Of a stretch of DNA of 64,000 nt, positions 11,890-27,263 are shown piece after piece (within the stretch, counting starts at the first letter, position 1; every line of letters starts with the position of its first letter). Source of the stretch: Stieleria neptunia (GTDB lineage: Bacteria > Planctomycetota > Planctomycetia > Pirellulales > Pirellulaceae); NCBI RefSeq assembly GCF_007754155.1, contig NZ_CP037423.1, positions 2,790,001 through 2,854,000 on the forward strand, in the 5' to 3' direction. A program made the translations under genes and the position numbers. Under the pieces are notes generated by a model. It searched no databases, was not told where the DNA came from, and saw only the letters and a list, made by a program, of their open reading frames with translations.

Positions 11890-12066
11890 AATGAAGTTGG
11901 ATCGACCGCCAGCAGTTCAATTGCATGCTCGTACACCCAATCCAGGAAGTCTCGGATTGTGGATCGAGATAGCTGCTCTAGCTGGACGTCTTGGCCCCAA
12001 CTGATCCACTTTCTGACAGTAGCTTTGTATTCATCGCTTGTGCCCTTTGAGTGCTTCTTGGCTATG
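11890..12066 (-). pseudogene. N-terminal remnant of a different tyrosine recombinase
   Basis: On the minus strand, translation gives IAKKHSKGTSDEYKATVRKW, then ISWGQDVQLEQLSRSTIRDF and LDWVYEHAIE. This is the SAM-like N-terminal domain pattern of planctomycete phage integrases (GTxxEYxxTVRKWxxWG, then IRxFLDWVYExA). No start codon and no catalytic domain follow: the frame continues into unrelated sequence (LLAVDPTSFSW). It differs from the recombinase at 1.7-2.7 kb, so at least two integrative elements have touched this region. Confidence 0.55.
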
Positions 12067-12486
12067 CAATAATGTCTTGCTGCGGATGGAAAATCTGTCG
12101 ATATCTGGAGGTGCTCCGACGTTGCCGTCGACTACTTCCGCTAGGCTCCGCTCGACGTGCGACGGGACTGAATGCTCCTGCTCGACGTCCGAATCTCAGG
12201 CAGAAAAGATTCCCCATCATAGTTCGAGCTATCATGCGATGCGCCGGTCGATGAAAGCGAAGGAAAAGGTTCCAGGACTCAAAAGCAGGCGATCACATGC
12301 GTTTCGATATAGCGCAACTCTCCAAGCGTCTAGAAACTGGATCCGCTTCCTCAGGCTGACGCAAGTTTCACAGAATCGCTTGCACGCTCCGGTGTCCGGA
12401 AACGCAATTTGCTTGGGCGTTTACTTTTGTCCGTCCTTTTGGCCAAGCGGCGTTCTCGGCGAGACGGCTCAGTATAGCAATCGTCG
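12067..12486. other. Decayed sequence without a supported gene
   Basis: Only short overlapping frames occur on both strands, none with recognisable domains. It separates the integrase remnant from the broken membrane-protein gene. Confidence 0.4.
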
Positions 12487-12754
12487 TCACGTCGCAGGTT
12501 GTGCCGCCCGGTGGCTGGCGGGAGTATCCAGCAGCAGCCATCGAACCGTGCTGCAGATCAGTCCATGAGCGAGAGCGGTCAGCGTCGAAAACAGAAATCC
12601 CCCCAAACGAAACCGCCTGCGATTCAGGGCTCCCGCTCAGCCAAGACCGCACGACCGAAGAATGGAAGCTGACCCCAACCAGCCCCAGAAACCCCGGGAG
12701 CAGGTAAGCAATCACCAATCCAAAGTTGCCCCGAGAGATCTGCTGCATGTCCAA
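12487..12754 (-). pseudogene. Conserved membrane protein, frameshifted at a C6/G6 run
   Basis: The first ~50 codons read MDMQQISRGNFGLVIAYLLP, then GFLGLVGVSFHSSVVRSWLS, a hydrophobic N-terminus I associate with a conserved bacterial membrane protein of about 200 residues. At the six-base G run (plus-strand CCCCCC near 12,600) the frame must shift to continue as GGFLFSTLTALAHGLICSTV then RWLLLDTPASHRAAQPA before a TGA. Both halves are hydrophobic and compatible, so a frameshift is likely. The 3' end is then lost. The family assignment is from memory of its N-terminus only. Confidence 0.55.
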
Positions 12755-12978
12755 ATGCTAAATCGGAATCGCCCACAGCGCAACCAGCATCTCACCCGAC
12801 TGCAGGTCTGATTCACGACCTAGACGAAGCAGTTGCAGGATCTACCCCAAGCCACCCCGCCAAACTGGCCCACTTCCTGTCCGCCATCGACATCCTGTGT
12901 CAGCGGCGAGGGTTAAAAGGACAATCTGTCAGGTCAGCACTCATCATTTTGCAAAACTACCCACCTCCGTCGAGGTTG
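12755..12978. other. Short region without a supported gene
   Basis: No convincing gene on either strand. One plus-strand frame reads AKLAHFLSAIDILCQRRG, which looks protein-like but has neither start nor full length. Confidence 0.35.
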
Positions 12979-13200
12979 TTAGAGATTTTTTGGCGACTCC
13001 GACTTGGCAGCTTTCGCTTCCGCGGCTCGCTTCTGCTTTTCAATATGGGCGAGCAGTTCTTCGTCGCTCGCCAAGCCTTGAAAGTAGTACGAAATCATTT
13101 CGAACGTTCGTTTAATCGAATGGATTTCCGTCAATGTTCGACATGCGGTCACGGTGAGGTGGTGTCCCAGGGTTGTAGACACCAAAGCGGGTGTGACCAC
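12979..13200 (-). CDS. Small hypothetical protein or 3' remnant
   Basis: 73 codons ending TEIHSIKRTFEMISYYFQGL, ASDEELLAHIEKQKRAAEAK and a lysine-rich tail. The C-terminal two thirds look like a genuine amphipathic helical tail. The N-terminal part (MVTPALVSTTLGHHLTVTAC) is less convincing, so it may be the end of a lost larger gene. No family is recognised. Confidence 0.25.
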   Translation of the reverse strand: MVTPALVSTTLGHHLTVTACRTLTEIHSIKRTFEMISYYFQGLASDEELLAHIEKQKRAAEAKAAKSESPKNL

Positions 13201-13333
13201 GTGGTTTCATCGTCGGCATAGCAAACGCAAGATGATGTCAATGCGGAGGCGCATGGAATAAACCGCGAAAAACAATCCCTTCTTTTCGCGGTTTGGCGGG
13301 TTCGCCAGCGCTGGCTGAGCGTTGATCCAAGGC

Positions 13334-14095
13334 TTAATCGACCAGGATCGATTGGATCTGGATTTCGATCGATGCCAGGTCCGGTCCTTCGGCGATGACA
13401 TCGTTCGACCAGGTTTCGAATTCGGCGTCAACCTGTTCTTCGATTCGGATTCTCCGGTCTAACTTTGACTCGAGTTCGACGGCTCGGCTCAAGTCGTCTT
13501 CATCGAAAGACGCTTTGTCGACCACCGCAATTTGAGTCGCCGCCTGACGAGCCCGCAGCGAATCTAACTGCTGTTTCAGCGTGTCACGTTGAAGCGACCA
13601 GCGATCGAATCGGTTCACAAGGTCGGTCACAGCCTCTCGATGAGCCGTCACCGCTTTCTCACGAGCCTCCATGGTTCCGCTGTGAGTCTTGTACGCCGAA
13701 ATCAAGTGTTCCAGTCGACTCTTGAACGCAGGGTCGACCGTTCCGCCGCAACCGGAACCCGTCGAAACGAACATCGGCAATTGGTCTCGCATGTGGACGA
13801 TCGTCTGCTTCAGCGTGCGACACTTGCACTGTGAATCCGCGAAGAGTGTCTCCGCGTCTTCGAGGTCAACCTTGGCACGTGCGACAACCCGTTTGTGCTC
13901 CTTCGCTTGCGTGTCTAGTTTTTGGATCAGCAACTGCAACCGATTCAGTTCAATCTCGGTCGGAATAGACTCCGAAGAGGCCTCACGAATCTCTTCGCGG
14001 GTCGCCTGGTAGTATTCGCTCAGCTCTTCCCACGACCATCCCGTGAACAGAAGCACCAAACTCAGGCATCCGACCAATGACATTAGCTTTCTCAT
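13334..14095 (-). CDS. Exported or membrane-anchored coiled-coil protein, last gene of the caspase operon
   Basis: 253 residues from the ATG at 14095, preceded by GAGAAAG. An N-terminal hydrophobic segment (MSLVGCLSLVLLFTGWSWEE) acts as signal or anchor. The rest is almost all heptad-like helix (LNRLQLLIQKLDTQAKEHKR, ARAKVDLEDAETLFADSQCK, AVTAHREAVTDLVNRFDRWS). A cysteine-glycine loop (STGSGCGGTVDP) breaks the coil and CKC occurs before it. The gene lies 132 bp after the upstream gene in the same orientation as the caspase-cytochrome operon. No family is known to me; a scaffold or envelope role is inference. Confidence 0.75.
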   Translation of the reverse strand: MRKLMSLVGCLSLVLLFTGWSWEELSEYYQATREEIREASSESIPTEIELNRLQLLIQKLDTQAKEHKRVVARAKVDLEDAETLFADSQCKCRTLKQTIVHMRDQLPMFVSTGSGCGGTVDPAFKSRLEHLISAYKTHSGTMEAREKAVTAHREAVTDLVNRFDRWSLQRDTLKQQLDSLRARQAATQIAVVDKASFDEDDLSRAVELESKLDRRIRIEEQVDAEFETWSNDVIAEGPDLASIEIQIQSILVD

Positions 14096-14227
14096 TTCTT
14101 TCTCTCGCAAAAACGGTTTCAACTTTGTTGCGGGCTCATCGCCGCGTCCTACCTTTGCAACGAGCCGGAAGTCGAAATCTTCCGAACAACCGATTGAAAA
14201 AGAGATTGAAAAACTTATCGACCAGTA

Positions 14228-15346
14228 TTAGCGGGCATAGCGGATGGACACGAAATCGTGCGGCGGATCGAATTCCCGCTGGACCGGTTTCTGAAAAACT
14301 TTTCTCGGGGGGCCGAACCCGGTTTCTTTGCCCGGTGCCGAACGGCCTCCCATCGGGATCACTTTGGTGAATCCAAATTGCACGTGGATCACGCCAATTT
14401 TTCCCTTCGCATCAATGCCCGATTTGGCCGAGGCGCCCTGGCCGTAGGACGTGACCAGGAATGACTTGTAGTTTTCGTTGCCTCCGACGGAATGGTGCCA
14501 GCCCACGATGACGGCCTCGGACAGAGGGGGCACGATCATGTGAGAATACAGCGGACGTCCGTCGTCGCCACGATCCTGGCTGAAATGAAACATGTCGATT
14601 CCGTCCACCGAGACATTCGCAGCGATTTCCCGCGGGTATCGGTTGTAGAGCTTGATCTCGTAGATCTCGTCGACGGCAATGTCAACAAAGGCCAATCCAT
14701 CGAGATCCTTCGCCGATCGAGGTCGGGCAGGCGCATGCGGGCTGGGGCGCACCAGGACTTCGACGGCGAGTTTGCTTTCCCGAGAGCTGGACACCAACGA
14801 ACGTTGTGGGCCGTGGAGAAAGACGGAGGGATTTTTGACCGCACTGGCAAGAATTTGATTTCGTTCTTCTTTCGTCCCGTTGGCCGGAAGGGCAACGGTT
14901 TCTTGAATCACCTTGGCAATCGTCTTGGTATGGTCCAATTCAAGACGAATCGGAAATTTTCCCAACTGTTTTCCGCCTGCGGCTAGGTCGATCACCCGCG
15001 CGTCAATACTCACGACCCGCGCCAAGGATTTGTTGGCCTCGGATTGGCTCTTGACGAACATGTAGTCGCCCTTGACTTCGAAATCTGCCCGTTTGTTGAC
15101 CGAGCCCGGTTTCTGGTCCTCGAGAGCGGCAGCGAGTGCTTCGGAACATCCGGGGCCGAAATTCGTGTCGGGAAGCCCGGTCGGGGAAAAGACACCCACC
15201 GCGACCTGCTGTCCTCGGGTCAAGGCCAAGACTCGACGGGCCAGTTCGACCATCTTGTCGTCGAGCTGGGATGCCGCCACCTGAGTCGGCGAGACGCTGA
15301 ACGTGAGCGCGAGGAAAAAGCCGATGCCTATCCGATCCATGTTCAT
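14228..15346 (-). CDS. Secreted protein with a caspase-associated beta domain
   Basis: 372 residues from MNMDRIGIGFFLALTFSVSP with a signal peptide ending near VAA. The first part (MVELARRVLALTRGQQVAVG, FSPTGLPDTNFGPGCSEALA) looks like a lipoprotein-type nucleotide- or peptide-binding region. The second part holds VDEIYEIKLYNRYPREIAAN, VSVDGIDMFHFSQD, IVPPLSEAVIVGWHHSVGGN and KSFLVTSYGQGASAKSG. I associate this beta-rich region with proteins found beside bacterial caspases (DUF4384-like neighbours), though I cannot confirm the exact family. It follows the cytochrome-like gene by 35 bp. An extended start at 15469 would overlap that gene and lacks a signal peptide. Confidence 0.8.
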   Translation of the reverse strand: MNMDRIGIGFFLALTFSVSPTQVAASQLDDKMVELARRVLALTRGQQVAVGVFSPTGLPDTNFGPGCSEALAAALEDQKPGSVNKRADFEVKGDYMFVKSQSEANKSLARVVSIDARVIDLAAGGKQLGKFPIRLELDHTKTIAKVIQETVALPANGTKEERNQILASAVKNPSVFLHGPQRSLVSSSRESKLAVEVLVRPSPHAPARPRSAKDLDGLAFVDIAVDEIYEIKLYNRYPREIAANVSVDGIDMFHFSQDRGDDGRPLYSHMIVPPLSEAVIVGWHHSVGGNENYKSFLVTSYGQGASAKSGIDAKGKIGVIHVQFGFTKVIPMGGRSAPGKETGFGPPRKVFQKPVQREFDPPHDFVSIRYAR

Positions 15347-15381
15347 TTCGTAGACTCCTGGTTGACGGTACACGTGAAAAT

Positions 15382-17166
15382 TTACAGCGGTAGAACGGGC
15401 GTTGCGCCCAACTCGGTTGCAATCTGTTGCATCAGAGAGGGGCCGAACTTGCTGTCTAAAGCCTCCCATTCGGGACGGCTGATGACCCCGCCCTTCATCA
15501 AAGACTCCAAGCCCAGACGCTTCAACGTATTGTCTCCGACCCGCAGCAACTGAGTTTCCTCTTTCAAGTCAAGTTCCGTCAGCACGGTGTTGAGGTCGAG
15601 GTAGACCGAGCGATGCCAAACCGCGACTTTGCGGACGGGTTCGTCGAAGGATTGGAGATCATCTTCATCGTTGAAGTATGTCGAAATGCACCGTCGCAAC
15701 GCTTGCATGAAGCGTTGTTGGTCTTCCTGCAAAAGTTCGTCCATCGCTTCACGTTCGGGATAAAGTCTCTCGACGTGTTGCTCGACTTCACCAAAGGTCG
15801 CGTTGCCTAGCCGGATCGAATCCTTAAACTTGATCATGCCGTGACGGTGGCAGGCAATGCAGGAGAGTCCGTTGACGATTTCGGGGGTCCCGCTGGTGCG
15901 CCGGGCGTCGCTTACAACCGTGATCGGCCCGACATCGATCCGCTGATCCTCTCCGTCGACGAGCATGTAGGCCTGCATTCCGTTGGGCAATGAAAAAATG
16001 ACTTCACCTCCGTCGTGCTCGAAGGCGAACCGTTCGAACGGATGGCGACGGTCCTCGAAAAGATTCGCCGGCCCGAGCGGAAACCGCGTCAGTTTGGCAC
16101 GCCCCGTGTCGGGTTTAAAGTCGTAGCTCTTCCAATAGAAACCGTGAAGCGCGTCGCTCCTCTGCACCAGCCGGTTTTGACCCGAAATGCCGCTGCGGGC
16201 GAATCCAGCTCGGGCGATGCGTCTCGGTTTGGGGTTGAGAAAATCACTTGCGATCGAAACCTCCAGGCGGGCTTCCAGTGATCGAGCGTCCGTCGGGATC
16301 TGCAACAACTTGTGATACAGCGGTGGGCGGGTCGCGGTGGCGACAAACCAGTCCGCCCGGAGAACTGGAATCTGCGTTTGCGTCAGACCTTGAACGGCTA
16401 GATCGTTCTCGTGGGCTTCCCCGTGGTGTTGCGAAAACTCGAAACTAAGTCCATATGGATAGGCTTTCTGCAGTTCATTCCAATTCGCATTTCGTTGCCG
16501 ATCCCAACCGAATTCTTTCAGATCGATCACGTACAGGATATCGTCGTTTACACCGTCAACTTCGACGGCGTCGGGTAGGGTGATGCGTCGTTCCCAGGTC
16601 AAGCTGTTGAGCACTTTGGATAAACCGGCGCGGTAGAACCGCAGATCGGACGGGTCCGTCGACCTCCGGTTGTAAACATTGTGAAGCGTAAAAAACCTGA
16701 GTTGCGGCCGGTCTTCTCGGGCTGCGTTTCTCAGATAGCCGAGGGCTGCTGAATAGATCGACTCGATAGAGACAAAATCACTTCGGTCCGCCTGGGGAAA
16801 GTCGGTCGCACCTCCGGCGATCCATTGTCGAAGGATTTCTCGTTCTTCTTCGGTCACCGGTTGAAGTTCCCGGTTCGCCGCCGGTGGCATGTCCTCGTCA
16901 ATGATTCGGAGATAAACGAGCGATTCCTCTGGATCTTGCGCGATGACATAGCCTTCATCACTGGACCGCATCGCCGCAGCGTTGAGCACATTGAAACCGT
17001 CGTCGTCGTCTTGGCCGCTATGGCACTCGACACAGTGACGCCGAAGCACCTGGCGTGCCTTGGCGGCCAACGGTTGGTCGTCAGCGGCGGAGACGTAGTA
17101 CAGCGGCGACAGGGCGAGGAAGGCGAGAACAAACGTTCGCATTGAAATACGCTTGGCAAGGACCAT
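15382..17166 (-). CDS. Exported diheme cytochrome-c-like protein
   Basis: 594 residues with a signal peptide (MRTFVLAFLALSPLYYVSAA). Two heme c motifs are visible: CVECH at 45-49, in the planctomycete cytochrome arrangement (ARQVLRRHCVECHSG ... ILRQWIAGGA), and CIACH at 436-440 in VNGLSCIACHRHGMIKFKDS. The middle part (LRFYRAGLSKVLNSLTWERR; LPDAVEVDGVNDDILYVIDL) is a conserved-looking region I cannot name. It should be a periplasmic electron carrier or redox sensor. It is 7 bp from the upstream gene and belongs to the caspase operon, a striking association. Confidence 0.88.
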   Translation of the reverse strand: MVLAKRISMRTFVLAFLALSPLYYVSAADDQPLAAKARQVLRRHCVECHSGQDDDDGFNVLNAAAMRSSDEGYVIAQDPEESLVYLRIIDEDMPPAANRELQPVTEEEREILRQWIAGGATDFPQADRSDFVSIESIYSAALGYLRNAAREDRPQLRFFTLHNVYNRRSTDPSDLRFYRAGLSKVLNSLTWERRITLPDAVEVDGVNDDILYVIDLKEFGWDRQRNANWNELQKAYPYGLSFEFSQHHGEAHENDLAVQGLTQTQIPVLRADWFVATATRPPLYHKLLQIPTDARSLEARLEVSIASDFLNPKPRRIARAGFARSGISGQNRLVQRSDALHGFYWKSYDFKPDTGRAKLTRFPLGPANLFEDRRHPFERFAFEHDGGEVIFSLPNGMQAYMLVDGEDQRIDVGPITVVSDARRTSGTPEIVNGLSCIACHRHGMIKFKDSIRLGNATFGEVEQHVERLYPEREAMDELLQEDQQRFMQALRRCISTYFNDEDDLQSFDEPVRKVAVWHRSVYLDLNTVLTELDLKEETQLLRVGDNTLKRLGLESLMKGGVISRPEWEALDSKFGPSLMQQIATELGATPVLPL

Positions 17167-17173
17167 GAATCAT

Positions 17174-19588
17174 CTAAGGCAATCGAAACAGAGTGGCTGT
17201 TGTGCTACGCATCACGATGTCCTCGTGAAGGCGATAACTTTCTTTAATCGTTCCGGCATCGACAATGACGTCCTGACCGACTCGCGACCAGGTGCCGGAC
17301 ACCGGTGGAACCCTCTTGTCGAATGTTTTACTGATCCGTGCGGTTCCACTCTCATTCGTTCCGCCGAGTGTGTAGGTCATGCCGTCCAGCCGGAACCAGT
17401 CGCCGGTCAGGCGGAAGGGAGGGACCACGAACGCCTGACGTATTGCGTCGGGAAGTCCGTCCCCGCTCATCAGTCTGATTTCGCCCGACCCGGCCGTGGC
17501 CACCATGTGGTATTCCAATTCACCTTTGTTATGGATTGCTCCGACCGCTCGCAGGATTGCAATTTTTCCAGCGAGCGTCTCGTAGGACTTGGGAATCGTT
17601 TTTCGCCGACGTGCGACGGTGCCGTTCGCCTTATTGATTCCGAATTGCAGCTTTTGAATTTGACCGCTTAGAGCCCCCATTTGATTCGCAAGTCGACCGG
17701 CCTGTTGTGGGTTTTGATTGGCCATCCCCCTTAAACGACTCAAGTCGCCCTGCAACTTGTTTAGCTGTGGAGTGGCGATCAGGATTTGATTGATCGCGTT
17801 TCCGTATGCGGCGACGTCCTCACGGATCCTTCTAACAAGCTGATTCAGGTCATCGTTCAGATCGTCGATGCTTTTGGTCACATACGTACCGCCCCGGTCC
17901 TCGGAAATGCGGACCCGCGTTGCCATCCCCAACTGAAACGTGTCCGAACTTGATTCGGCCTGGTCCAACCGCAGCGCCACCTTGACCATCTCTTGTGAAT
18001 CCACCGGAAACATGTGCGGCGTGTTCAGTGGTAGCGGAGCGCCGCCCGAACCATCGAATTGCGCCAAGATCGGAAGAGTGGAATGAACGGATTTCAGCGT
18101 CCCGTCTTTAACGGTTGGCGACTGCGATTGGGGTACGTCGGGCTTGAGGCCGTCGCGGTGCATCATTACCCGCAAGCCGAGCGTCGACGCGGACGGTGGT
18201 GCAAACACCTGAAGTGGAATCTTCACATCGCGGCCCGACAATTCGGTCGGTTGGCGACTCTGGTGGGACACCGACCGTAGCTGCAACACTTTCTTCTCGT
18301 CCTTGAACGTCATGGTGAGCAAACAGTTCGCCAGTTGCTCCGCCCTCGGGACCGGTCGGGACATTTCCCAAAGGAAACGGAACTGGTTCAACTCGTCGAC
18401 CAAAAAGTGACCGACCTGGTCGGTCGCGCCGGTTTGATTACCAGTCGGCTTGATCACAACCCGCCAGCGTTTGGATTCGCGTTCGTTGGAATCCGCATCT
18501 TCGATCGCGAGTTGATACCTTCCCGACAGATCGGCCGCGGAGCTGTCGAGCGAGAGCGTTAGAAGGCTAAAGTCGCTGAGCGATACTTTTCCGGCCGTTG
18601 AAGACTTTGAGATCTCCGTCGCGCTTCGAGGCATCTCCGGTAGTGGAAATTCAGTGCTCAGGTCGTCGAAAGCCGCGCCGATTGGTTTCGGAGTAGGTTC
18701 CTCGTCAATCTCCGAAGACATGGGTGGCCCGGCGGCACCTGGTACGCCTGCGGCCGCCAAATCGGACGGCGACTGACCGGGAAGAGACGGTTCCTCCGTC
18801 GCGTTGCCCAGCGTCGACGAATCGAACGCATCGGTATCGGTGTCATCGGAGGCGACGTTGTTTGCTGACGTCGGTGGATCTTGCGATGGAGCGACCGCAG
18901 CAGCGGCGGGGATTGACGATTCTGGGGCCGTGCCTGATCCGCCGACGGCCGCGGTGACATCGCGGTCCGATCGACCGCGCGTCATCAAACTCATGATCAA
19001 CAAAGACAACAACATTCCGTTGAGCGCGAGTGATCCGATCAGCGGCCACTGTGGTCGGCCCCAAGCATGACCGGCCACCGACTTTCCTTGGGCGTGCGTT
19101 TGATCGATTCGCCGATCGGGATGGTCCGCATCTTCGACGTGCGTCGGCTGAGGGGACTCGGTTGCGGCGGCTCGTCGTGCACGCGGCGGTCCCGAGGCCC
19201 GCATTTTTGTGGCCGACTGCAGAGCGGCATTGGAACTCGTTTCGCCCTCCTTGTGAGCCGCTCGTGTGCCAGCCCCAACCGATCGTTGCTGCACGAATCG
19301 CAAGTTGGTGTCGTAAATACCTTTGGACGTTTCGTCCAGCAGTTCATCATGTACCGCTTTGAGTTGTCGGAGGACTGCTTGCGCCTCCTTGGTTTCGTCC
19401 GGAGTCGCAACGTTCTTGATTTGCCGTTGTCTGGCAATGGCCGCGGCGCGAATCAAGTCGGGGTTCGATTCGAATCTTGCGAGACCTAATAGCCGGTAAT
19501 AGTCCGGTGGACATTCGTCGGCCGGTATGCCCAGCCATTCCACATAGCATTTTTGCACAAGCGCGGACACATTTGAGTTCGGCATCAC
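17174..19588 (-). CDS. Large membrane protein with N-terminal J-like domain and coiled coil
   Basis: 804 residues. Residues ~13-98 resemble the planctomycete J-domain-like region (YVEWLGIPADECPPDYYRLL, FESNPDLIRAAAIARQRQIK, LRQLKAVHDELLDETSKGIY). A low-complexity linker leads to one membrane segment at ~181-203 (WPLIGSLALNGMLLSLLIMS). The outer part contains beta-rich stretches, a coiled coil (LNKLQGDLSRLRGMANQNPQ, QMGALSGQIQKLQFGINKAN) and a C-terminal beta domain (GDWFRLDGMTYTLGGTNESG). A cytosolic J-like head with a periplasmic sensor-like body would fit signal transfer across the membrane. It lies 7 bp from both neighbours. Confidence 0.85.
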   Translation of the reverse strand: MMPNSNVSALVQKCYVEWLGIPADECPPDYYRLLGLARFESNPDLIRAAAIARQRQIKNVATPDETKEAQAVLRQLKAVHDELLDETSKGIYDTNLRFVQQRSVGAGTRAAHKEGETSSNAALQSATKMRASGPPRARRAAATESPQPTHVEDADHPDRRIDQTHAQGKSVAGHAWGRPQWPLIGSLALNGMLLSLLIMSLMTRGRSDRDVTAAVGGSGTAPESSIPAAAAVAPSQDPPTSANNVASDDTDTDAFDSSTLGNATEEPSLPGQSPSDLAAAGVPGAAGPPMSSEIDEEPTPKPIGAAFDDLSTEFPLPEMPRSATEISKSSTAGKVSLSDFSLLTLSLDSSAADLSGRYQLAIEDADSNERESKRWRVVIKPTGNQTGATDQVGHFLVDELNQFRFLWEMSRPVPRAEQLANCLLTMTFKDEKKVLQLRSVSHQSRQPTELSGRDVKIPLQVFAPPSASTLGLRVMMHRDGLKPDVPQSQSPTVKDGTLKSVHSTLPILAQFDGSGGAPLPLNTPHMFPVDSQEMVKVALRLDQAESSSDTFQLGMATRVRISEDRGGTYVTKSIDDLNDDLNQLVRRIREDVAAYGNAINQILIATPQLNKLQGDLSRLRGMANQNPQQAGRLANQMGALSGQIQKLQFGINKANGTVARRRKTIPKSYETLAGKIAILRAVGAIHNKGELEYHMVATAGSGEIRLMSGDGLPDAIRQAFVVPPFRLTGDWFRLDGMTYTLGGTNESGTARISKTFDKRVPPVSGTWSRVGQDVIVDAGTIKESYRLHEDIVMRSTTATLFRLP

Positions 19589-19595
19589 AGTTGCC

Positions 19596-21179
19596 TCAGC
19601 GAACGGGTTGAAAAAAAAGTGGACGACCCTCGACGAATGCTTCGTCCTCTCCCTCCTGCCAACGAATCACACCATCAAAAACTTCCGCGACGGTTGAGAT
19701 CTTGACGGATAAATTTCGGTCGCGATAAACGGTCCGTAGCTTTCCGGCCTGCGCGGGCGGGGAGCCGAAAAACTCCCAACCGGTCGCGGACGCCCCGCCT
19801 AGACAGCCGACCCATTCAAGCGTCGGCACGTCCTGGCCCGCGGGATTGACCGCCAGCCGAAGCGCGTGTTCGCAGGCTTTCGGGACAGCAGGCAATCTCC
19901 GAAAGAACTCAGTCGCTTGTGCGATTGCGGTCCGATCTTCGGCGGTTTGCGGGGCGATCCAATTGGCCGTCCGATCGATCTTCGCGGATTCCTCCAATGC
20001 CCGCAGATGCCGATCAAACGCACGCGTCATCGGTTCGCTTCCGAGGCAGGCGACACGAAGCAGATTCTCAAAAAACGTTAGCCGCACGAGCGGATCCGCA
20101 TCGGCGGCCTGGGTGACGTCGACGATCGCGTTGCAAAAAACACTTTCCCACTGACGGCCGGCGAGGTCCTCGGCGAGTTGCAGACGCTCTCGAACCTTCC
20201 GCGCCAGGGCACAGTGCGGGGCCAATGTCACTCCCGGTTTGATCTCCGCCCATTTTATCCGCTTCTTTTTCGTCTTCAGCCCGACCAAATCCACGACGTA
20301 ATCCAGTTCGGCTTCTCGTTTCTGAGGGTCGTTCTTCACCGAACCCGCCCGGACGTAGTAACGCTGTCCGCTTTTCAGGATAACCAGATTGAGGTGCGCG
20401 TACGCATCCTCGTCGAGCAAAGCGGTGACGCGTTGATCAAGTCGCTTGTCGGCGTGATCGAGCCGTGACGAGACACAAAACAAATGCGGTCGCAGCTTTC
20501 TGTAGCTCGGTTCGTAGGGAGCGATCCGCCACCTCTCGGCAATCCGATCGCCTTCTCGAATCAACTCGCGCGCCTGCCCAGGGCGTAGCCCCTCGCGAAG
20601 TCCCCGATCGATTTTTTCAAAGATTGACACCCACTGCAGCGTTCCACGCCAGATCGGCGCCTCGATCGCCGCTCGACGGTATTGGGGAGCCGAACTCAGT
20701 TGGGGGTACGATTTGGCGAGCTGGCCGAGTTGCTCGGCAAATCCATCGATGTCTTTGATCGATGTGGATAGATTTGCAAAATCGGTTCGACGGCTGACAT
20801 CAATGGCGGCGAGTCTGGCTTGAAAGGATTCTTGAAATGCTTGCTGCTGTTGAACAGTCGAGAGCAGTTCGCCGGGCAAATCGTCCACCGCGTCCTCAGC
20901 AGAAGCGATGGTCGCGCCGACGACGGAATCGTGCGCGGTCATCTCGTGCGACGCCGGCTGGGCCGCGGCACCTCGGGATTCCGAGCCGCTCGGTGTCGTG
21001 CCCGCCACGACATCGCTACGTTCGGAGGAATCTGCGGCGGTCGTTTCGGTGCGACTTGACAACGCGGTAATCAGGACACCCACGCCCACGCCGATCGCGA
21101 CCATTGCGATTCCGGACGCCACCAGGACGATCGGATATCGTTTTTCCTTCGTTTCGGTAGGCTGCGTTTCATCACTCAT
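19596..21179 (-). CDS. Single-pass membrane protein of the caspase operon
   Basis: 527 residues with a short cytosolic N-terminus, one membrane segment (YPIVLVASGIAMVAIGVGVG VLITAL, ~15-40), a Ser/Thr/Ala-rich linker (~42-100) and a large extracytoplasmic helical body (FQARLAAIDVSRRTDFANLS, WVSIFEKIDRGLREGLRPGQ). A beta section follows (LVILKSGQRYYVRAGSVKND; ISTVAEVFDGVIRWQEGEDE). The start codon overlaps the caspase stop by 4 bp, so the two are translationally coupled. I do not recognise a domain; a receptor or adaptor for the caspase is inference. Confidence 0.82.
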   Translation of the reverse strand: MSDETQPTETKEKRYPIVLVASGIAMVAIGVGVGVLITALSSRTETTAADSSERSDVVAGTTPSGSESRGAAAQPASHEMTAHDSVVGATIASAEDAVDDLPGELLSTVQQQQAFQESFQARLAAIDVSRRTDFANLSTSIKDIDGFAEQLGQLAKSYPQLSSAPQYRRAAIEAPIWRGTLQWVSIFEKIDRGLREGLRPGQARELIREGDRIAERWRIAPYEPSYRKLRPHLFCVSSRLDHADKRLDQRVTALLDEDAYAHLNLVILKSGQRYYVRAGSVKNDPQKREAELDYVVDLVGLKTKKKRIKWAEIKPGVTLAPHCALARKVRERLQLAEDLAGRQWESVFCNAIVDVTQAADADPLVRLTFFENLLRVACLGSEPMTRAFDRHLRALEESAKIDRTANWIAPQTAEDRTAIAQATEFFRRLPAVPKACEHALRLAVNPAGQDVPTLEWVGCLGGASATGWEFFGSPPAQAGKLRTVYRDRNLSVKISTVAEVFDGVIRWQEGEDEAFVEGRPLFFQPVR

Positions 21180-22795
21180 CGAACATCACACACCACGCGT
21201 ATGCCCACGAAGGGCTCTCTTGAGCCGGGATCGGCTGACTGTCGGCTGCCACAACGCAGAAGGTAAGGATGGTCGAACCATGATCCGCCACGAACGACCC
21301 GCTTCGTTCCACTCGTCGGACCGACCGGATCGGCGGTCGGGGAAACGTCGTAATAAGCAGCGCCGAACCAGTCTTGGCACCATTCAGAGACATTCCCCGA
21401 CATGTTGTAGATCCCGAACGCGTTGGGGCGATAACTTGCGATGTCGGCGGTTTGTTTTAGAAAGATGCCGCCACCACTCGCAGAAGCAAATCGTCCGTCC
21501 GCGTTCGCCTGACCGTCTCGATAGACGTCTCCGAACCCATACGCCGCAGTGCTGCCTGCCCGGCAGGCGTATTCCCATTCAGCTTCAGTCGGCAAGCGGT
21601 ACCGTCTGCCGGCACGCACCTCTACAGGAAGCTTTGAAAGACGACGACAAAACTCGTTTGCGTCTTGCCAACTCACCTGTTCGACCGGTCGTTGGTCCGA
21701 TAGTTGTCCCGCCAACCGCTCGGCCCCGTCGCCCCAATCGCTGAAGTAACTGGGGTTGGTCTCCATCACAAATTCGTAATCGCATTGTGAGACCTCAAAC
21801 ACGGAAAGATGAAACTCACGCGAGACATCCACGCGGTGAGGACGTTCCTCCGGGCGGCGACCCGGCTGATCGATCGGTGAACCCATGATGAAGGAACCCG
21901 GATGGATCTTTTGGAACTTCATCCCGATCGAATTCACAAAGGAGTGATCCAACTCTTCTTGCTTAGGACGTTGAATCTCTGTCGGCACTTCGCTCCAATT
22001 GCCTTCTCCCAAGACGGCAAACGGAATGCCACCAGCGCTGATCGGAACTTGCGGCGTACCGTCAGGCATGTGCCGACGGAGCTGTTCGGTCGCCATCACC
22101 CAATCGACATACGAGACCAGTTGCGACCACACGATTTTTCCGTCCCGCGCCGCTCCGCCTCTTAGGCCTTCCAGAACCGCGTACGTGAACAATCCGTGAC
22201 GAAGAGTGTCGTTTTCGAATGATCGCTGGCCGGAGCGGCAACTAAAGAGGATGGCGGTGTCTTCGGGCAATGCAATGGTCGCATTTCCTTGGATCCCGCG
22301 GCCGACGTCGTCGGCCACGTTGCGGCACGCGTCGACCATGACGATGCGTCGGCCGACGTTCGGTATCAACTGACGATCGATCAAATGGCTGAGCGAATAG
22401 AGTGACTCGGCGTCACGATTTATTCCGTCATAGGGACAGAAAAATGCGTCTTCGGACGGCAAACCGTCGATCCCCGTCACTTCGATTTGCTGGCCGTGGC
22501 CGGCCAACATCACCAACATCAGATCGTCTTTGCCAAGCGGCGCGACCACGCGATCAATGGTGTCTTCGATTCTGGTGCGGGTTGCTTCAGGCCCCCGAAG
22601 CAAGGTTGTCGTAAAGCCGAGTTTCTTCAATTCAGCATCCACCGCCTCGACGTCCGCGCGGGCGAATCGGAGGCTCGTGAATGCGGGTTTTTGGTACTCA
22701 TTCACGCCGACCAGCACGGCCACCTTGCGTCCTTGGGCGGAGGCGGCCGATGCGAGAACCATGGAGGCCGCCACGGCGATCAGGAGATAGGTCAT
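21176..22795 (-). CDS. Exported caspase-like (peptidase C14) protein fused to an FGE-sulfatase-like domain
   Basis: 539 residues from the ATG at 22795 (MTYLLIAVAASMVLASAASA signal peptide); longer starts reach into the promoter region. The caspase p20 domain has RKVAVLVGVNEYQKPAFTSL, the catalytic His100 in MLAGHGQQ and Cys157 in IVMVDACRN. From ~285 an FGE-sulfatase/C-type-lectin-like domain follows: FVNSIGMKFQKIHPGSFIMG, RPVEQVSWQDANEFCRRLSK, RLPTEAEWEYACRAGSTAAY, GNVSEWCQDWF and RVVRGGSWF. The FGE part keeps only one Cys (LLRCGSRQ) where formylglycine-generating enzymes have two, so it may bind rather than modify a target. First gene of the six-gene operon. Confidence 0.92.
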   Translation of the reverse strand: MTYLLIAVAASMVLASAASAQGRKVAVLVGVNEYQKPAFTSLRFARADVEAVDAELKKLGFTTTLLRGPEATRTRIEDTIDRVVAPLGKDDLMLVMLAGHGQQIEVTGIDGLPSEDAFFCPYDGINRDAESLYSLSHLIDRQLIPNVGRRIVMVDACRNVADDVGRGIQGNATIALPEDTAILFSCRSGQRSFENDTLRHGLFTYAVLEGLRGGAARDGKIVWSQLVSYVDWVMATEQLRRHMPDGTPQVPISAGGIPFAVLGEGNWSEVPTEIQRPKQEELDHSFVNSIGMKFQKIHPGSFIMGSPIDQPGRRPEERPHRVDVSREFHLSVFEVSQCDYEFVMETNPSYFSDWGDGAERLAGQLSDQRPVEQVSWQDANEFCRRLSKLPVEVRAGRRYRLPTEAEWEYACRAGSTAAYGFGDVYRDGQANADGRFASASGGGIFLKQTADIASYRPNAFGIYNMSGNVSEWCQDWFGAAYYDVSPTADPVGPTSGTKRVVRGGSWFDHPYLLRCGSRQSADPGSREPFVGIRVVCDVR

Positions 22796-23169
22796 TGAGA
22801 CGATCTGCACTTGATTCCCGTTGAAGCTAGAACGATGCAAGGGGGGGGAGGGTCCGGGCATTCTAGTGAAGAGGTGCTGGTGGGTCCACCAGATGGCGGG
22901 GTTTTCTGCGCTCGCGAGGCTGGGGGGGGTGTTTTTGTTCACTTCCGAGTTTGAGTGGTGCCGGCCGCCAATTCGTTTAACGAATGGGGATGGATTCTCT
23001 TCCAAGATTCCTGGCCGATGTTGAACGACGTGGTTGGCGATGGCCGGCGATCTGAAAATCCTTTTTTGCGCGCCGATTATTGGAAGGATTCGCCAGGTGT
23101 CTCGTTGTGGGGATTGAGTGGCAATCGGTCGCTCAATCTCACAAACACACTCTGAACGAGGCACACACG
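22796..23169. other. Divergent promoter region between the caspase operon and the sigma group
   Basis: About 370 bp without a supported gene. It contains two long G runs (GGGGGGGGAGGG at ~22,842 and GGGGGGG at ~22,922) and must hold promoters for both directions. I could not identify -35/-10 elements with confidence; an ECF-type promoter recognised by the neighbouring sigma factor is expected. Confidence 0.5.
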
Positions 23170-23544
23170 ATGCGCTGCGATCCGACCGAACGAAGTAAGA
23201 AGACGCCTGATTGCAACCGTAACGAGGGAGAGGGACTGGGGCTGAGGGTCGGTCGTCGATCTCCGCCGGTCGCAGGGGCGAAAAGCGATCGGCATTCGGA
23301 AACCGTAGCGGTTTCGAGCGATCGTGTTGCCTACACTCGACTGGCGAATCGTTTGTATGCGAGGCGGACCATTCGTCATAACGTGCTTCGGTCCGCCGCA
23401 TTCTCGTTGATCGTGCCGGTCGCCTTAGCGTATCTCGGGGCGATCAACCTCGGCGCAATGTCGGCGATGTTGACGGGCTCATTTATCACCGTGTGTGGCG
23501 CGCTTTGGGCCGTGGCAAGGTTCACACAGCGATGCTATTCCTAG
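23170..23544 (+). CDS. Small membrane protein, first gene of the sigma group
   Basis: 124 residues from the ATG at 23170 (MRCDPTERSKKTPDCNRNEG), with ACGAGG upstream. The N-terminal half is polar; the C-terminal half has two hydrophobic stretches (VLRSAAFSLIVPVALAYLGA, MSAMLTGSFITVCGALWAVA). It overlaps the upstream extension of the sigma frame. No family is recognised. Position suggests a role in controlling the sigma factor or the divergent operon. Confidence 0.5.
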   Translation: MRCDPTERSKKTPDCNRNEGEGLGLRVGRRSPPVAGAKSDRHSETVAVSSDRVAYTRLANRLYARRTIRHNVLRSAAFSLIVPVALAYLGAINLGAMSAMLTGSFITVCGALWAVARFTQRCYS

Positions 23545-23591
23545 CGGTTGTGGTCAACGCCAATCGGTTTTACCATAGTGAAGACTGGTTT

Positions 23592-24197
23592 GTGGTCCAG
23601 CAAACGTCGTTAGAGCAACTCGCCCCGCAACCAAATGTGATTGAGCAGTTGAGTGGAAAGGAATCGCCGGAAACTCTAGTCTCCCGATGCAGGAAGGGTG
23701 ATCGACGTGCGTTCGATCGTCTTCAGCAAGTCAGTGACGCCCAGCTCAGAAGGTACCTTGAGAAAAAGTCGGGGGCTCGCGGGTCGGTCGACATCGATGA
23801 TGTCATGCAGGAAACGTGGATCAAGGTCCTGAACAACCTCAACGCGTTCACTCACGGATCGTTCATGGCTTGGCTGTACACCGTCGCATGGAGGACGTTC
23901 TTGGATGCCCAGAAGAAGCGTCGTCCGGTCCAGGTCAGTGACGATACTCTCTTTGAACACTACCTCCGCGTCGATCTGCCGAAGCACAGCGATGGTGCGG
24001 CACTGGACGCACTCGAATCTTGCGTCAACAGCTTGGATGCCGGCAAGGTTCAGTTCGTCAAACTGCTGCTCGCCGGCATGAAAGCCGACGCGATCGCCAT
24101 CAAACTTGGATTGACGAATCAACAAATCTACAAGCGTAAGCACACTCTCAAAGCGGAATTGTTTGACTGTATTATGCGTCGCCTGAATTCCGAGTAA
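23592..24197 (+). CDS. ECF-like RNA polymerase sigma factor facing the caspase operon
   Basis: About 201 residues from a GTG at 23592. The frame is open to 23493 with an ATG at 23532 that would overlap the preceding gene. Region 2 is LVSRCRKGDRRAFDRLQQVS, DIDDVMQETWIKVLNNLNAF, SFMAWLYTVAWRTFLDAQKK. Region 4 is a divergent helix-turn-helix (FVKLLLAGMKADAIAIKLGL, TNQQIYKRKHTLKAELFDC). It likely transcribes its own operon and the divergent caspase operon. The gene 5 bp downstream encodes a membrane protein that could be its anti-sigma factor. Confidence 0.8.
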   Translation: MVQQTSLEQLAPQPNVIEQLSGKESPETLVSRCRKGDRRAFDRLQQVSDAQLRRYLEKKSGARGSVDIDDVMQETWIKVLNNLNAFTHGSFMAWLYTVAWRTFLDAQKKRRPVQVSDDTLFEHYLRVDLPKHSDGAALDALESCVNSLDAGKVQFVKLLLAGMKADAIAIKLGLTNQQIYKRKHTLKAELFDCIMRRLNSE

Positions 24198-24202
24198 GCC
24201 TT

Positions 24203-25093
24203 ATGCCACTGCGTCTACAATCACTTCCCGAACAGACGGATGACTGGCCGGATTGGCTCGAACGGCAAATCGTCGGTACCGATCTATCCGATTTGATTCA
24301 CGAGTTGAGTGTGTTCGGCGCGGCGAAGGAAGCTGTTGCACCGGTCCCCGCCTCATTGGCAGACGTGTTCGGGCCGGCCTACGAAGATGTCTTACGCGAC
24401 GGTCTATCACAGGCGTCGCCGGATCAGATTCAGATTCTGATCGAACGCCCCCGGTTGCTTCTCGTCCTTCAAGAAGAAGCGCTCGTCGGTGGCAGCCAAT
24501 ACTGGATCGACCGCTGCCAGGCCGCCCACGAAGACTTAGAGTTTGAATTTGACGAGACGGGATCGGATGCGGTTCAGCCCGGGTCTGCCACCGTAGCGAC
24601 CGGTGACGAATCAACCGAACCGAATCGGAGGACCCGGATTTCTCGTACCGCCTTGGTACTGCTTTCGCTGGCTGCGGTGCTGTTCGTTGCGGTGATGCTG
24701 TTCCTGCGTCCTTCGGCTCAAGATGCCGAGTGGGGGTTTCACGATGACAGTGTTTTTGTCGCCGGCTCTCCGGACGACTACTTTCGGTCGCTCGCCGGCG
24801 CGGCAAACGAGTGGTTCGATGAGCGGCCACAAACTGCAGAGGAACTCATGGCCCGTTTGGCCGAGTTCAGTAGCGGTTGTCAACGCGTCATCGACATGGA
24901 GCACGACAATCTGACCGATCTGCAATGGCAATGGCTCGTCAACCGCTGTGAACTTTGGAAAGACCAGATCGACACCCTGAACCGTCGGCTTGCCGCAGAC
25001 TCGACACGGTTTGCACAAACCCTGTCCCAAGCGGATCAGACGATCGAGCGGATCGTTGAAGCACTGAAGGATCAGGCCGAATCGGTCGGCTAG
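24203..25093 (+). CDS. Single-pass membrane protein, putative anti-sigma partner
   Basis: 296 residues. The cytosolic N-terminal ~145 residues are acidic and helical (WLERQIVGTDLSDLIHELSV, LADVFGPAYEDVLRDGLSQA). One membrane segment follows (TALVLLSLAAVLFVAVMLFL, ~148-170), then a periplasmic helical region (LAGAANEWFDERPQTAEELM, ADSTRFAQTLSQADQTIERI). It starts 5 bp after the sigma gene stop. There is no zinc anti-sigma motif (HxxxCxxC), so the anti-sigma role is inferred from position and topology only. Confidence 0.72.
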   Translation: MPLRLQSLPEQTDDWPDWLERQIVGTDLSDLIHELSVFGAAKEAVAPVPASLADVFGPAYEDVLRDGLSQASPDQIQILIERPRLLLVLQEEALVGGSQYWIDRCQAAHEDLEFEFDETGSDAVQPGSATVATGDESTEPNRRTRISRTALVLLSLAAVLFVAVMLFLRPSAQDAEWGFHDDSVFVAGSPDDYFRSLAGAANEWFDERPQTAEELMARLAEFSSGCQRVIDMEHDNLTDLQWQWLVNRCELWKDQIDTLNRRLAADSTRFAQTLSQADQTIERIVEALKDQAESVG

Positions 25094-25173
25094 CAGGATC
25101 GCCCCTCTGACACGCGGCATCATCGACGGTGTGGACAAGGCGGAGTCGCCTCAAATCTCTGTAGGGCTTTTGT

Positions 25174-25470
25174 CTAAACGGGGCGAACTCCTTCCACGAT
25201 GAGGCCGCGGTAGACTGCGCCACGGAAACGATGCTGAGCGGCTTCTTGGTAGGCAGGGCTGTCGTACCATTTGCGAGCCTCCTCCACAGTCGGAAACTCT
25301 GCGATGACGACGCCTTCAACGTCTGGTCCCTCCAACGTTACATGGGTACCATACGCGGCCAGAGGCTTCACCGGATGCCCCTCCATTGCGGCAGGTGCTT
25401 TCTGCCAATAAGTCTCCAACTCTGACGTGTCGAGCGTCTTTTCGCGGATGAACACGATGTAGGCGGACAT
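25174..25470 (-). CDS. DUF1330 family protein
   Basis: 98 residues, full length for this ferredoxin-like alpha+beta family. Typical segments are MSAYIVFIREKTLDTSELET, YWQKAPAAMEGHPVKPLAAY, VVIAEFPTVEEARKWYDSPA and YQEAAQHRFRGAVYRGLIVE. Biochemical function is unknown; the fold resembles small dimeric monooxygenase-like proteins. It lies 51 bp downstream of the SDR gene in the same orientation, and likely shares its transcript and the upstream sigma factor. Confidence 0.88.
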   Translation of the reverse strand: MSAYIVFIREKTLDTSELETYWQKAPAAMEGHPVKPLAAYGTHVTLEGPDVEGVVIAEFPTVEEARKWYDSPAYQEAAQHRFRGAVYRGLIVEGVRPV

Positions 25471-25521
25471 GGACTCTCCTTTGCTGATTGAAATTGATGG
25501 GGGATAGGTTTTCGCTGCCGT

Positions 25522-26277
25522 TTATCGCAGACCGCCGGATGCCAGGATCGCTTCGCCTGTTAGCCAGCCTGCATCATCGGACGCGAGGAAGGCAACGACT
25601 TTGGCGATGTCCGGTGGTGTTCCGATGCGACCGAGCGGGGTCATGGCTACCAGTTGCTGTTCGAAGTCACTGCCCGTGCCATATAACCCGGCCGATTTCG
25701 TCCCTTCGCTTAGCGTCGCACCAGGATTGACCGAGTTGACTCGGATGCCACGAGGGGCCAGTTCTTTCGCGAGCACTCTGGTGATCGCATCGAGTGCACT
25801 TTTGCTCGCGGCGTAGATCGAATAGCCGGGCGGGCACATTTTCGATGCACCGGAACCGATGTTGATGACGCTGCCGCCGTCTGGTCCGAAGCGATGGAGC
25901 GATTTCTGAATCACCATCAACGGGCCGAGGACGTTTGTGTTGAACTCACGCTGGAATTCGCTTTCGGTGACCTCCTCAAGGTTCATTGGCAGATAGACGC
26001 CGGCGTTGTTCACCACGATATCGAGCGGCCCGCAGGCGTCGGTGACTTCTGCCAGCATTCGACATATGTCGTCGGAATTCGACACGTCACCCTGTATCGA
26101 AATTGCTTGCCCTCCGGATTCGTTGATCTCCCGAGTAACAGCATCCGCGCCGGTTTTGTCCCGGTGAAAGTTGACGGCGACGACCGCGCCTGCGGCGGCC
26201 AGTTCTTTGGCGATGGCGGCCCCGATCCCTTTCGAACCACCGGTCACCACAGCGACCCGGTTCTGCAGTTTCAGCAT
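25522..26277 (-). CDS. Short-chain dehydrogenase/reductase (SDR)
   Basis: 251 residues from [20 protein letters not shown], with the NADP-binding TGGSKGIG, the NNAG motif ([18 protein letters not shown]), the catalytic Ser in INIGSGASK, and [13 protein letters not shown] with Tyr and Lys. The C-terminus ([15 protein letters not shown]) is typical of the FabG-like classical SDRs. A longer start at 26322 exists but adds unrelated residues. It is downstream of an ECF sigma gene and upstream of DUF1330. Substrate unknown. Confidence 0.92.
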
Positions 26278-26366: not shown

Positions 26367-27263
26367 TCAACCCAAGTCCAGCGTCTTGCGAACTTCAGGC
26401 AGATCGAGAATTCGCCGCAGCCATCGGGCTTGCTCTGCAGGCTCCAGAAACGGGTGATCGCGGTAGATCGCGGCGAAGGATCGATCGGCGACATCGTCGA
26501 TCTCGCGAGCCATCCCCTGCGCGATGTCGCCAATCCGCTGAAGGTGGCTCGTCGCAAAAAGCAGGTTGTTGGGGTCCACGTGTCCCGCGTCGATGAAGCC
26601 TTTGGTCTTTTTGACACACCGACAGGGATTGCTTGCGTTGACCAGACCGCATTGCTGATTCATGAACTGGTGCAGGTCACGGCGTGCGCGGGAGAGACAC
26701 TGCCGGAAGTTGGCGGTCGTCATTTCCATGACTTCGCTGCCGACGGTGTCGCTCACGCCGATGATTTCGCCCAGCGTGAAGATCAATCGCTGTCGTCGGT
26801 CAAGGCAAAGCAGCATTCCTGTCGTGCAGGCGACTTTGGTTTCTTCGACCAACAGCGGCACTTCCACCGGCACACTTTGGGGATCGGGTGGATCTAGGTC
26901 CGCAGTGCCGTTGATGGCGTCCGCGTACGTTGAGAACGTCAAAGTCGCCTTCTCGCCGCCGCGGCGTTTCATGCTGAGAACGTGGTTCACTGTGATGCGG
27001 TAGAGCCATGTGCGAAATTGGCTGTCGCCACGAAACGTGCTGAGTCGAGTGACGACTTTGATCAGCACTTCCTGCGTGACCTCCTCCGCGTCCTGAGGCT
27101 CAAAGACAATGCGGACGGCGATGTTGTAGATCCATGCCTGATGCCGCAAAATCAGTTTTTCCAGCGCCGAACGATCACCGTTGTTGGCTCGGCAAACCAA
27201 CTCGGCGTCTTCCGAATCATCGGCAGAAGCTTCTGTGAAAGGATTGTGCATGGAGGTCCGCAT
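26367..27263 (-). CDS. ECF sigma factor with a C-terminal cysteine-containing extension
   Basis: 298 residues. Region 2 is ADDSEDAELVCRANNGDRSA, EEVTQEVLIKVVTRLSTFRG, FRTWLYRITVNHVLSMKRR. Region 4 is CLDRRQRLIFTLGEIIGVSD, EMTTANFRQCLSRARRDLHQ. After this comes ~95 residues with QQCGLVNASNPCRCVKKTKG, a conserved-looking Cys cluster, and helices (REIDDVADRSFAAIYRDHPF). Such an extension may sense a ligand or metal. An ATG four codons downstream (27251) is a possible start. It leads an SDR-DUF1330 gene set and diverges from the Rrf2 regulator. Confidence 0.9.
   Translation of the reverse strand: MRTSMHNPFTEASADDSEDAELVCRANNGDRSALEKLILRHQAWIYNIAVRIVFEPQDAEEVTQEVLIKVVTRLSTFRGDSQFRTWLYRITVNHVLSMKRRGGEKATLTFSTYADAINGTADLDPPDPQSVPVEVPLLVEETKVACTTGMLLCLDRRQRLIFTLGEIIGVSDTVGSEVMEMTTANFRQCLSRARRDLHQFMNQQCGLVNASNPCRCVKKTKGFIDAGHVDPNNLLFATSHLQRIGDIAQGMAREIDDVADRSFAAIYRDHPFLEPAEQARWLRRILDLPEVRKTLDLG

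What the first reader, a model, noticed from the sequence alone, without database searches (positions are those of the whole stretch)
13334..25093. Caspase-FGE, diheme cytochrome and J-like membrane protein operon facing a sigma/anti-sigma-like pair
Six tightly spaced minus-strand genes (overlap or 7-bp gaps for the first four) combine an exported caspase-FGE protein with intact His/Cys, two single-pass membrane proteins, an exported two-heme protein, a secreted partner and a coiled-coil protein. A sigma factor and membrane partner start on the opposite side of a shared promoter region. Bacterial caspases with FGE domains, sigma factors and helper domains are known from NTP-dependent conflict systems, but an exported caspase tied to a cytochrome c-like protein and a J-like membrane protein is not one I know described. 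It could be an envelope stress, death or redox-sensing module. Function is inference.
Basis: partly seen in the sequence, partly recalled or inferred. Interest (0 to 1): 0.82.

Follow-up and report, generated by a model that had tools for sequence, protein, structure and literature searches.

The report
Exported caspase paired with cytochrome c
A planctomycete bacterium carries an exported caspase-type protease in one operon with a two-heme cytochrome c and a partner envelope protein, a pairing that recurs across many bacteria and, as far as searched, is undescribed.

Summary
The operon is real and holds a conserved core. The wider core is three exported proteins: diheme cytochrome, g5, and a clan-CD protease (caspase, or CHAT instead). 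Of 76 loci around relatives of this cytochrome, 39 have a caspase or CHAT protease and 48 a g5-type gene within 8 kb; 23 have neither. A caspase lies within 10 kb of 20 of 77 cytochromes, where chance predicts about 0.5. The pairing recurs in two Pseudomonadota loci, one with five caspases. Catalytic His/Cys are nearly always kept; the FGE domain lacks the enzyme's cysteines. Models: cytochrome = class I cytochrome c plus a domain most like gas-binding cytochrome c'-beta (weak); g5 = LpoB/TolB-like domain plus Ig-like sandwich. Best reading: an envelope heme sensor that switches on an exported clan-CD protease, with a sigma factor reporting to transcription. Sensing, activation and outcome are inferred. 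No description was found in an open-access library.

The parts
21176..22795 (-). Exported caspase-FGE protein (539 aa): signal-type N-terminus, Peptidase_C14 with His100 (codon 22498-22496) and Cys157 (codon 22327-22325), C-terminal FGE/C-type-lectin-fold domain without the enzyme's two cysteines
19596..21179 (-). g2: membrane protein (527 aa), one N-terminal TM by reading; strong match only in S. maiorica among 14 genomes of the genus
17174..19588 (-). J: N-terminal J-like region, one TM by reading, long C-terminal part; lineage-specific member of the cassette
15382..17166 (-). Exported diheme cytochrome (594 aa): class I cytochrome c (heme 1 CxxCH, residues 45-49) plus cytochrome c'-beta-like domain (heme 2 CxxCH, residues 436-440)
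14228..15346 (-). g5: exported partner (372 aa), LpoB/TolB-N-like domain plus Ig-like beta sandwich; no Pfam family
13334..14095 (-). Coiled-coil protein downstream; absent in S. maiorica, relatives beside the cytochrome or asig at four other loci: possible optional member
22796..23591 (.). Divergent intergenic region, not conserved at DNA level with S. maiorica; promoters not located
23592..24197 (+). ECF-type sigma factor (best NCBIfam model TIGR02989, below its cut-off); start uncertain (23592 or 23637)
24203..25093 (+). asig: single-pass membrane partner of the sigma factor, with a Cys pair (226, 249) each kept in 27 of 28 aligned proteins; only match in the genome at E<=0.001

Best explanation
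It is an extracytoplasmic heme-sensor/protease cassette. A periplasmic diheme cytochrome (electron-carrying class I heme plus a c'-beta/P460-like heme that could bind NO or another small ligand) senses the redox state or a gas and, through the g5 partner, switches on an exported clan-CD protease, here a caspase whose lectin-fold (FGE) domain picks the target or place. The divergent sigma factor with its membrane partner couples the event to transcription; the partner's two conserved cysteines may be a thiol switch, or its outer domain may be a protease substrate. g2 and J are lineage-specific membrane adaptors. SHOWN by sequence: the genes, export-type signals, intact catalytic and heme-binding residues, conserved linkage, protease swapping (caspase for CHAT), gene fusions. 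INFERRED: ligand, activation, substrate, outcome.
For: Linkage: caspase within 10 kb of 20 of 77 cytochromes (window included), about 0.47 expected; caspase or CHAT near 39 of 76 loci and g5/g5b near 48 of 76. Internal control: in the cytochrome tree the g5-linked clade has a caspase at 27 of 43 rows (window included), the group of long fusions at 1 of 21 (Fisher 7.5e-6). Protease swap: CHAT at 8 of 10 rows of a second clade, CHAT confirmed by Pfam in five proteins. Fusions: kinase-cytochrome, cytochrome-FGE and cytochrome-g5, WD40-caspase. Second phylum: Neorhizobium plasmid and G913, with ferric reductase and OmpA in the same run. Export: 45 of 49 caspases, 65 of 76 cytochromes, 38 of 45 g5 pass an N-terminal hydrophobicity test. 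Dyad: His in 41 of 42, Cys in 38 of 40 aligned. Folds.
Confidence: 0.5

Rival explanations
1. A programmed-death or abortive-defence module: the sensor unleashes an exported caspase/CHAT protease that destroys the cell envelope or kills neighbours; the sigma factor only sets its expression.
For: Clan-CD proteases that swap within one cassette and caspase-rich loci such as L225, L233 and G913 with five caspases recall conflict systems; G913 caspases carry peptidoglycan-binding, SH3 and lectin domains.
Against: The PADLOC scan of the window gave one weak caspase hit (E 1.3e-6) and a few weaker matches to coiled-coil-type proteins; no NTPase or nucleotide sensor among the eight genes; only 1 of 72,556 plasmid records had a cytochrome match.
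Confidence: 0.22
2. A heme enzyme system: the cytochrome detoxifies or oxidises a nitrogen or peroxide species (P460-like chemistry), and the protease only matures or clears it.
For: c'-beta/P460-like fold; a weak di-heme peroxidase model match, far below cut-off (NF040606); a ferric-reductase-type NAD(P)H oxidoreductase beside the cytochrome in both Pseudomonadota loci.
Against: Fusions of the cytochrome to a Ser/Thr kinase, WD40 and FGE point to signalling; the protease partner changes family while the cytochrome stays.
Confidence: 0.18
3. Sigma-factor relay: the caspase is a site-1 protease whose main substrate is the outer part of asig, releasing the sigma factor as in RseA/DegS-type pathways (recalled).
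For: asig is single-pass, found once in the genome, co-occurs with the cytochrome (23 of 26 genomes) and sits by cytochrome or caspase at 15 of 29 places.
Against: Most cytochrome-caspase loci have no asig nearby, and 14 of 29 asig places have neither cytochrome nor caspase within 15 kb; no cleavage site or binding is shown; an anti-sigma role is itself unproven.
Confidence: 0.2
4. Chance neighbours: highly expanded planctomycete families that happen to lie together.
For: Cytochromes of the PSCyt1 kind, FGE and J-like proteins are numerous in these genomes.
Against: About 0.5 expected against 20 seen; clade-specific linkage; recurrence in a second phylum.
Confidence: 0.03

Closest known systems
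NTP-dependent conflict systems with caspase and FGS effectors (Kaur et al. 2020, eLife, PMC7159879; passages seen)
   Same: Caspase and FGE/FGS-type domains as exchangeable effectors in operons, planctomycetes among hosts
   Different: Those centre on NTPases (MoxR-vWA, GAP1, STAND); here no NTPase among the eight genes, parts exported, and a cytochrome is the constant partner; the one cytochrome passage shown to me concerns the APAF-1 apoptosome
Prokaryotic metacaspase-FGE proteins (2012 survey, PLoS One, PMC3501461; passages seen)
   Same: Caspase-FGE architecture, 33 of 671 sequences there; N-terminal TM/signal peptides noted
   Different: The word cytochrome does not occur in that main text; no heme partner there; its operon table (supplement) was not seen
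Orthocaspases of cyanobacteria (PMC8283722; passages seen)
   Same: WD40, FGE and DUF4384 as accessory domains
   Different: No occurrence of 'cytochrome' or 'signal peptide' in its main text
Cytochrome P460 / c'-beta superfamily (PMC11928373; passages seen)
   Same: The heme-2 domain gives its two best VIA matches there (7ead, 7s5o)
   Different: Here fused to a class I cytochrome c and linked to proteases; no occurrence of 'caspase', 'planctomycet' or 'fused' in that review
LpoB / TolB N-terminal / CsgG-type envelope domains
   Different: g5 adds an Ig-like sandwich and is encoded with cytochrome and protease
Animal apoptosome (cytochrome c, WD40-bearing APAF-1, caspase; recalled, and one passage)
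   Same: Works-like parallel: cytochrome c next to caspase, and a WD40-caspase protein at L220
   Different: No homology between the systems was tested or is claimed; the bacterial proteins are exported, the cytochrome is diheme; likely convergence

Membership tests
Caspase (Peptidase C14), active | p20 fold with His/Cys dyad | tested here: met
   PF00656 E 7.6e-19; His100, Cys157 aligned
Caspase (Peptidase C14), active | proteolytic activity | not testable with these tools
   sequence only
Formylglycine-generating enzyme | two active-site cysteines | tested here: not met
   alignments to 6muj and 2q17 put D and L where the enzyme has the two cysteines of its SYLC..YC stretch (that these are the catalytic ones is recalled); best solved match is PvdO, 5hha
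NTP-dependent conflict systems (Kaur et al.) | NTPase (MoxR-vWA, GAP1, STAND) core | tested here: not met
   no NTPase domain in Pfam among the eight genes; weak SMC/TrlF matches of the coiled-coil gene in NCBIfam are far below cut-off
NTP-dependent conflict systems (Kaur et al.) | cytoplasmic system (my reading of that paper's passages) | tested here: not met
   caspase, cytochrome and g5 carry N-terminal export-type stretches; hydrophobicity heuristic only
Diversity-generating retroelement target | reverse transcriptase nearby | tested here: not met
   nearest RVT_1 match about 0.3 Mb away
Diversity-generating retroelement target | template repeat | not tested
   -
Class I cytochrome c / PSCyt1 | CxxCH with downstream Met | tested here: met
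   PF07635 29.9 bits over cut-off 22; C37, C40, H41, M85 invariant in 59
Cytochrome P460 / c'-beta | beta-sheet fold with c-heme | tested here: inconclusive
ECF sigma factor | Sigma70 region 2 and ECF model | tested here: met
   PF04542 1.2e-10; TIGR02937 51.7 bits over 42.9
Anti-sigma factor | binds and inhibits its sigma | not testable with these tools
   only gene pairing and topology
J-domain co-chaperone | DnaJ domain with HPD | tested here: not met
   no Pfam DnaJ match at E<=1; no HPD by reading the N-terminal region
DUF4384 (g5 C-terminal part) | PF14326 match | tested here: not met
   PF14326 not among the families matched by any of 72 g5 members at E<=0.1; hhalign to DUF4384-type tails 0.1%; the label comes from one UniRef name

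The most novel reading that the evidence does not exclude
Bacteria possess a widespread, never described cytochrome-caspase signalling system in the cell envelope: a gas- or redox-sensing diheme cytochrome directly controls exported clan-CD proteases (caspase or CHAT), a bacterial counterpart in logic, though probably not in descent, of the cytochrome c-caspase axis of animal apoptosis.
Probability: 0.4. Interest if true: 0.95.

Novelty: new variant of a known kind. Interest (0 to 1): 0.83.

Why it matters
Why cytochrome c and caspases are wired together in animal cell death is an old question, usually discussed through the mitochondrial ancestor (recalled). Here a cytochrome c and a caspase are encoded together in bacteria, recurrently and in two phyla, with intact active sites, in a genus with cultured members (Stieleria; recalled). 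That makes 'can a bacterial heme protein control a caspase?' testable at the bench. It would also give exported caspases and CHAT proteases a candidate sensor, and it points to an undescribed envelope protein family (g5).

Tried and rejected
Rejected: six-gene operon as the conserved unit; active FGE enzyme; DGR target; NTP-dependent conflict system; g5 as DUF4384; plasmid-borne spread as the rule (1 of 72,556 records); Rfam element in 12000-26000; conserved divergent promoter.

Limits: loci are from draft genomes, many cut by contig ends. Nine of the 77 cytochrome matches were not fetched. Of 79 loci, three (L203-L205) gave no cytochrome call and were dropped; two fragments (L262, L263) were left out of the tree. 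The CHAT and g5b profiles were built from loci of the same set (L192, L210, L255, L258; L199, L201, L255, L258), and the cytochrome and g5 profiles from window, L151, L153, L155. Genomes are related, so Fisher values overstate independence; the 0.47 expectation assumes 7 Mb genomes.
Full report
WHAT IS THERE. The window is G000:C1:2790001-2854000 of a 10.98-Mb genome, by its relatives a planctomycete. On the minus strand run caspase-FGE (22795-21176), g2, J, diheme cytochrome, g5 and a coiled-coil gene; on the plus strand a sigma factor and a membrane partner, asig. The caspase overlaps g2 by 4 bp; g2-J and J-cytochrome gaps are 7 bp. g5 begins most likely at 15346. The coiled-coil gene is separated by about 130 bp. 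Pfam sees caspase, FGE, PSCyt1 and sigma region 2, and nothing over its cut-off in g2, J, g5, asig or the coiled-coil protein.

CONSERVATION OF THE WHOLE UNIT. The coiled-coil gene is missing there. Among 14 genomes of the genus g2 has one strong match outside the window, so the full unit is rare. Two further loci showed what is constant: G231 has cytochrome-g5-caspase, and G312, of another genus, caspase-cytochrome-g5-caspase.

THE CORE ACROSS PLANCTOMYCETES. A cytochrome profile finds full-length relatives (E<=1e-20) in 56 of 241 genomes of the family, 77 places, and 17 strong places in 11 of 392 genomes of the phylum. I fetched 79 loci; 76 gave a callable cytochrome. Within 8 kb, 25 have g5 and caspase, 2 g5 and CHAT, 13 g5 without either, 7 g5b and CHAT, 1 g5b alone, 4 caspase alone, 1 CHAT alone, 23 none (profiles partly built from the same loci). 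g5b is a longer relative of g5 (hhalign probability 92.6, E 4.6e-7). With the stricter pairwise caspase list, 20 of 77 cytochromes (window included) have a caspase within 10 kb, where about 0.47 is expected.

CLADES. A maximum-likelihood tree of 75 cytochrome domains has a supported g5-linked clade (43 rows with the window, 99/96): 39 with g5, 27 with caspase, 2 with CHAT and no caspase. A second clade (10 rows, 99/97) has CHAT at 8 and g5b at 8. The third group (21 rows, support 90/60) consists mostly of long proteins, some with SHD1, WD40 or FGE; one has a caspase nearby. It serves as an internal control from the same families (27 of 43 against 1 of 21, Fisher 7.5e-6). One long-branched row (L265) lies outside. 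The protease thus changes family (caspase or TPR-CHAT, both clan CD, recalled) while cytochrome and g5-type protein stay.

FUSIONS. Ser/Thr kinase-cytochrome (L196; P0228, P0232), SHD1-cytochrome-WD40 (L250), cytochrome-FGE (L236, L241, L243), cytochrome-g5 in one 1118-aa protein (L235), WD40-caspase (L220). Kinase and WD40 partners fit signalling better than plain respiration.

SECOND PHYLUM. A Neorhizobium petrolearium plasmid encodes a 1157-aa homologue with four CxxCH (30.8% over 78%, E 3e-48) in a same-strand run with an exported-looking caspase (PF00656 E 1.3e-34, peptidoglycan-binding domain), an OmpA protein and a ferric-reductase-type oxidoreductase. One of 299 sampled Pseudomonadota genomes, G913, has the same cytochrome (54% identity), with ferric reductase, OmpA, four same-strand caspases (tails DUF4384, LprI, SH3, peptidoglycan-binding plus C-type lectin) and a fifth, divergent one. 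The linkage is therefore not a planctomycete accident, though rare in that sample.

SIGMA PAIR. asig matches once in the genome and in 26 of 241 family genomes, 23 of which also have the cytochrome (Fisher 6e-14, relatedness not corrected). 12 of 29 places are within 15 kb of a cytochrome, 15 of 29 of a cytochrome or caspase. Of 15 asig loci fetched apart from cytochromes, 3 show a caspase. Cys226 and Cys249 of its outer domain are each kept in 27 of 28, a possible thiol switch. Anti-sigma function is inferred.

COILED-COIL GENE. Four relatives among 1067 proteins of 95 loci: L216 (45%, E 6e-65, same strand, just upstream of the cytochrome), L229 and L230 (20%, E about 5e-7, beside cytochromes) and L271 (24%, E 2e-10, two genes from asig). 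It may be an optional part.

HOW IT PROBABLY WORKS. A ligand or redox change at the cytochrome (inferred) is passed by g5 (inferred from adjacency and fusion) to an exported clan-CD protease (shown: gene, export-type signal, dyad; inferred: activation). The lectin-fold, WD40, TPR or peptidoglycan-binding part would set the target. The sigma pair would adjust transcription. Whether the outcome is repair or death is open.

LITERATURE. Searches of an open-access library. Passages seen: PMC7159879, PMC8195603, PMC3501461, PMC8283722, PMC11928373; all other papers only in listings, among them PMC5982838 and PMC3640913 on apoptosis origins and two more with DUF4384 and caspase. None of the passages seen describes a bacterial cytochrome-caspase operon; subscription papers and supplements were not searched.

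Noticed in passing
L287 (NZ_CP123001.1 498567-518048) and L291 (G913:C1:974500-994400): Multiheme cytochrome, ferric reductase, OmpA and one to five exported-looking caspases with cell-wall-type tails in Pseudomonadota; three further hypothetical proteins follow in Neorhizobium.
   Followed up: partly
L197 (G000:C1:7693500-7713400): Second relative of the cytochrome in the same genome, inside a 1546-aa ORF, with no caspase, CHAT or g5 within 8 kb.
   Followed up: partly
L225, L230, L246, L279 (G321 contig 51): A 189-kb contig with a dozen caspase match pieces and three cytochrome loci: a caspase-rich island.
   Followed up: no
G000:C1:9082300-9084936: Two reverse transcriptase matches with identical scores about 1.4 kb apart, perhaps a recent duplication.
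   Followed up: no
L152, L156, L157: A g2-like stretch inside ORFs of about 680-714 aa in the window's genome and relatives of the genus.
   Followed up: no
window 42001-44000: Strong AT skew (0.26) inside the 1366-aa ORF 41580-45680.
   Followed up: no
window 26367-27263: A second ORF that reads like an ECF sigma factor close to the cassette (by reading; not scanned).
   Followed up: no
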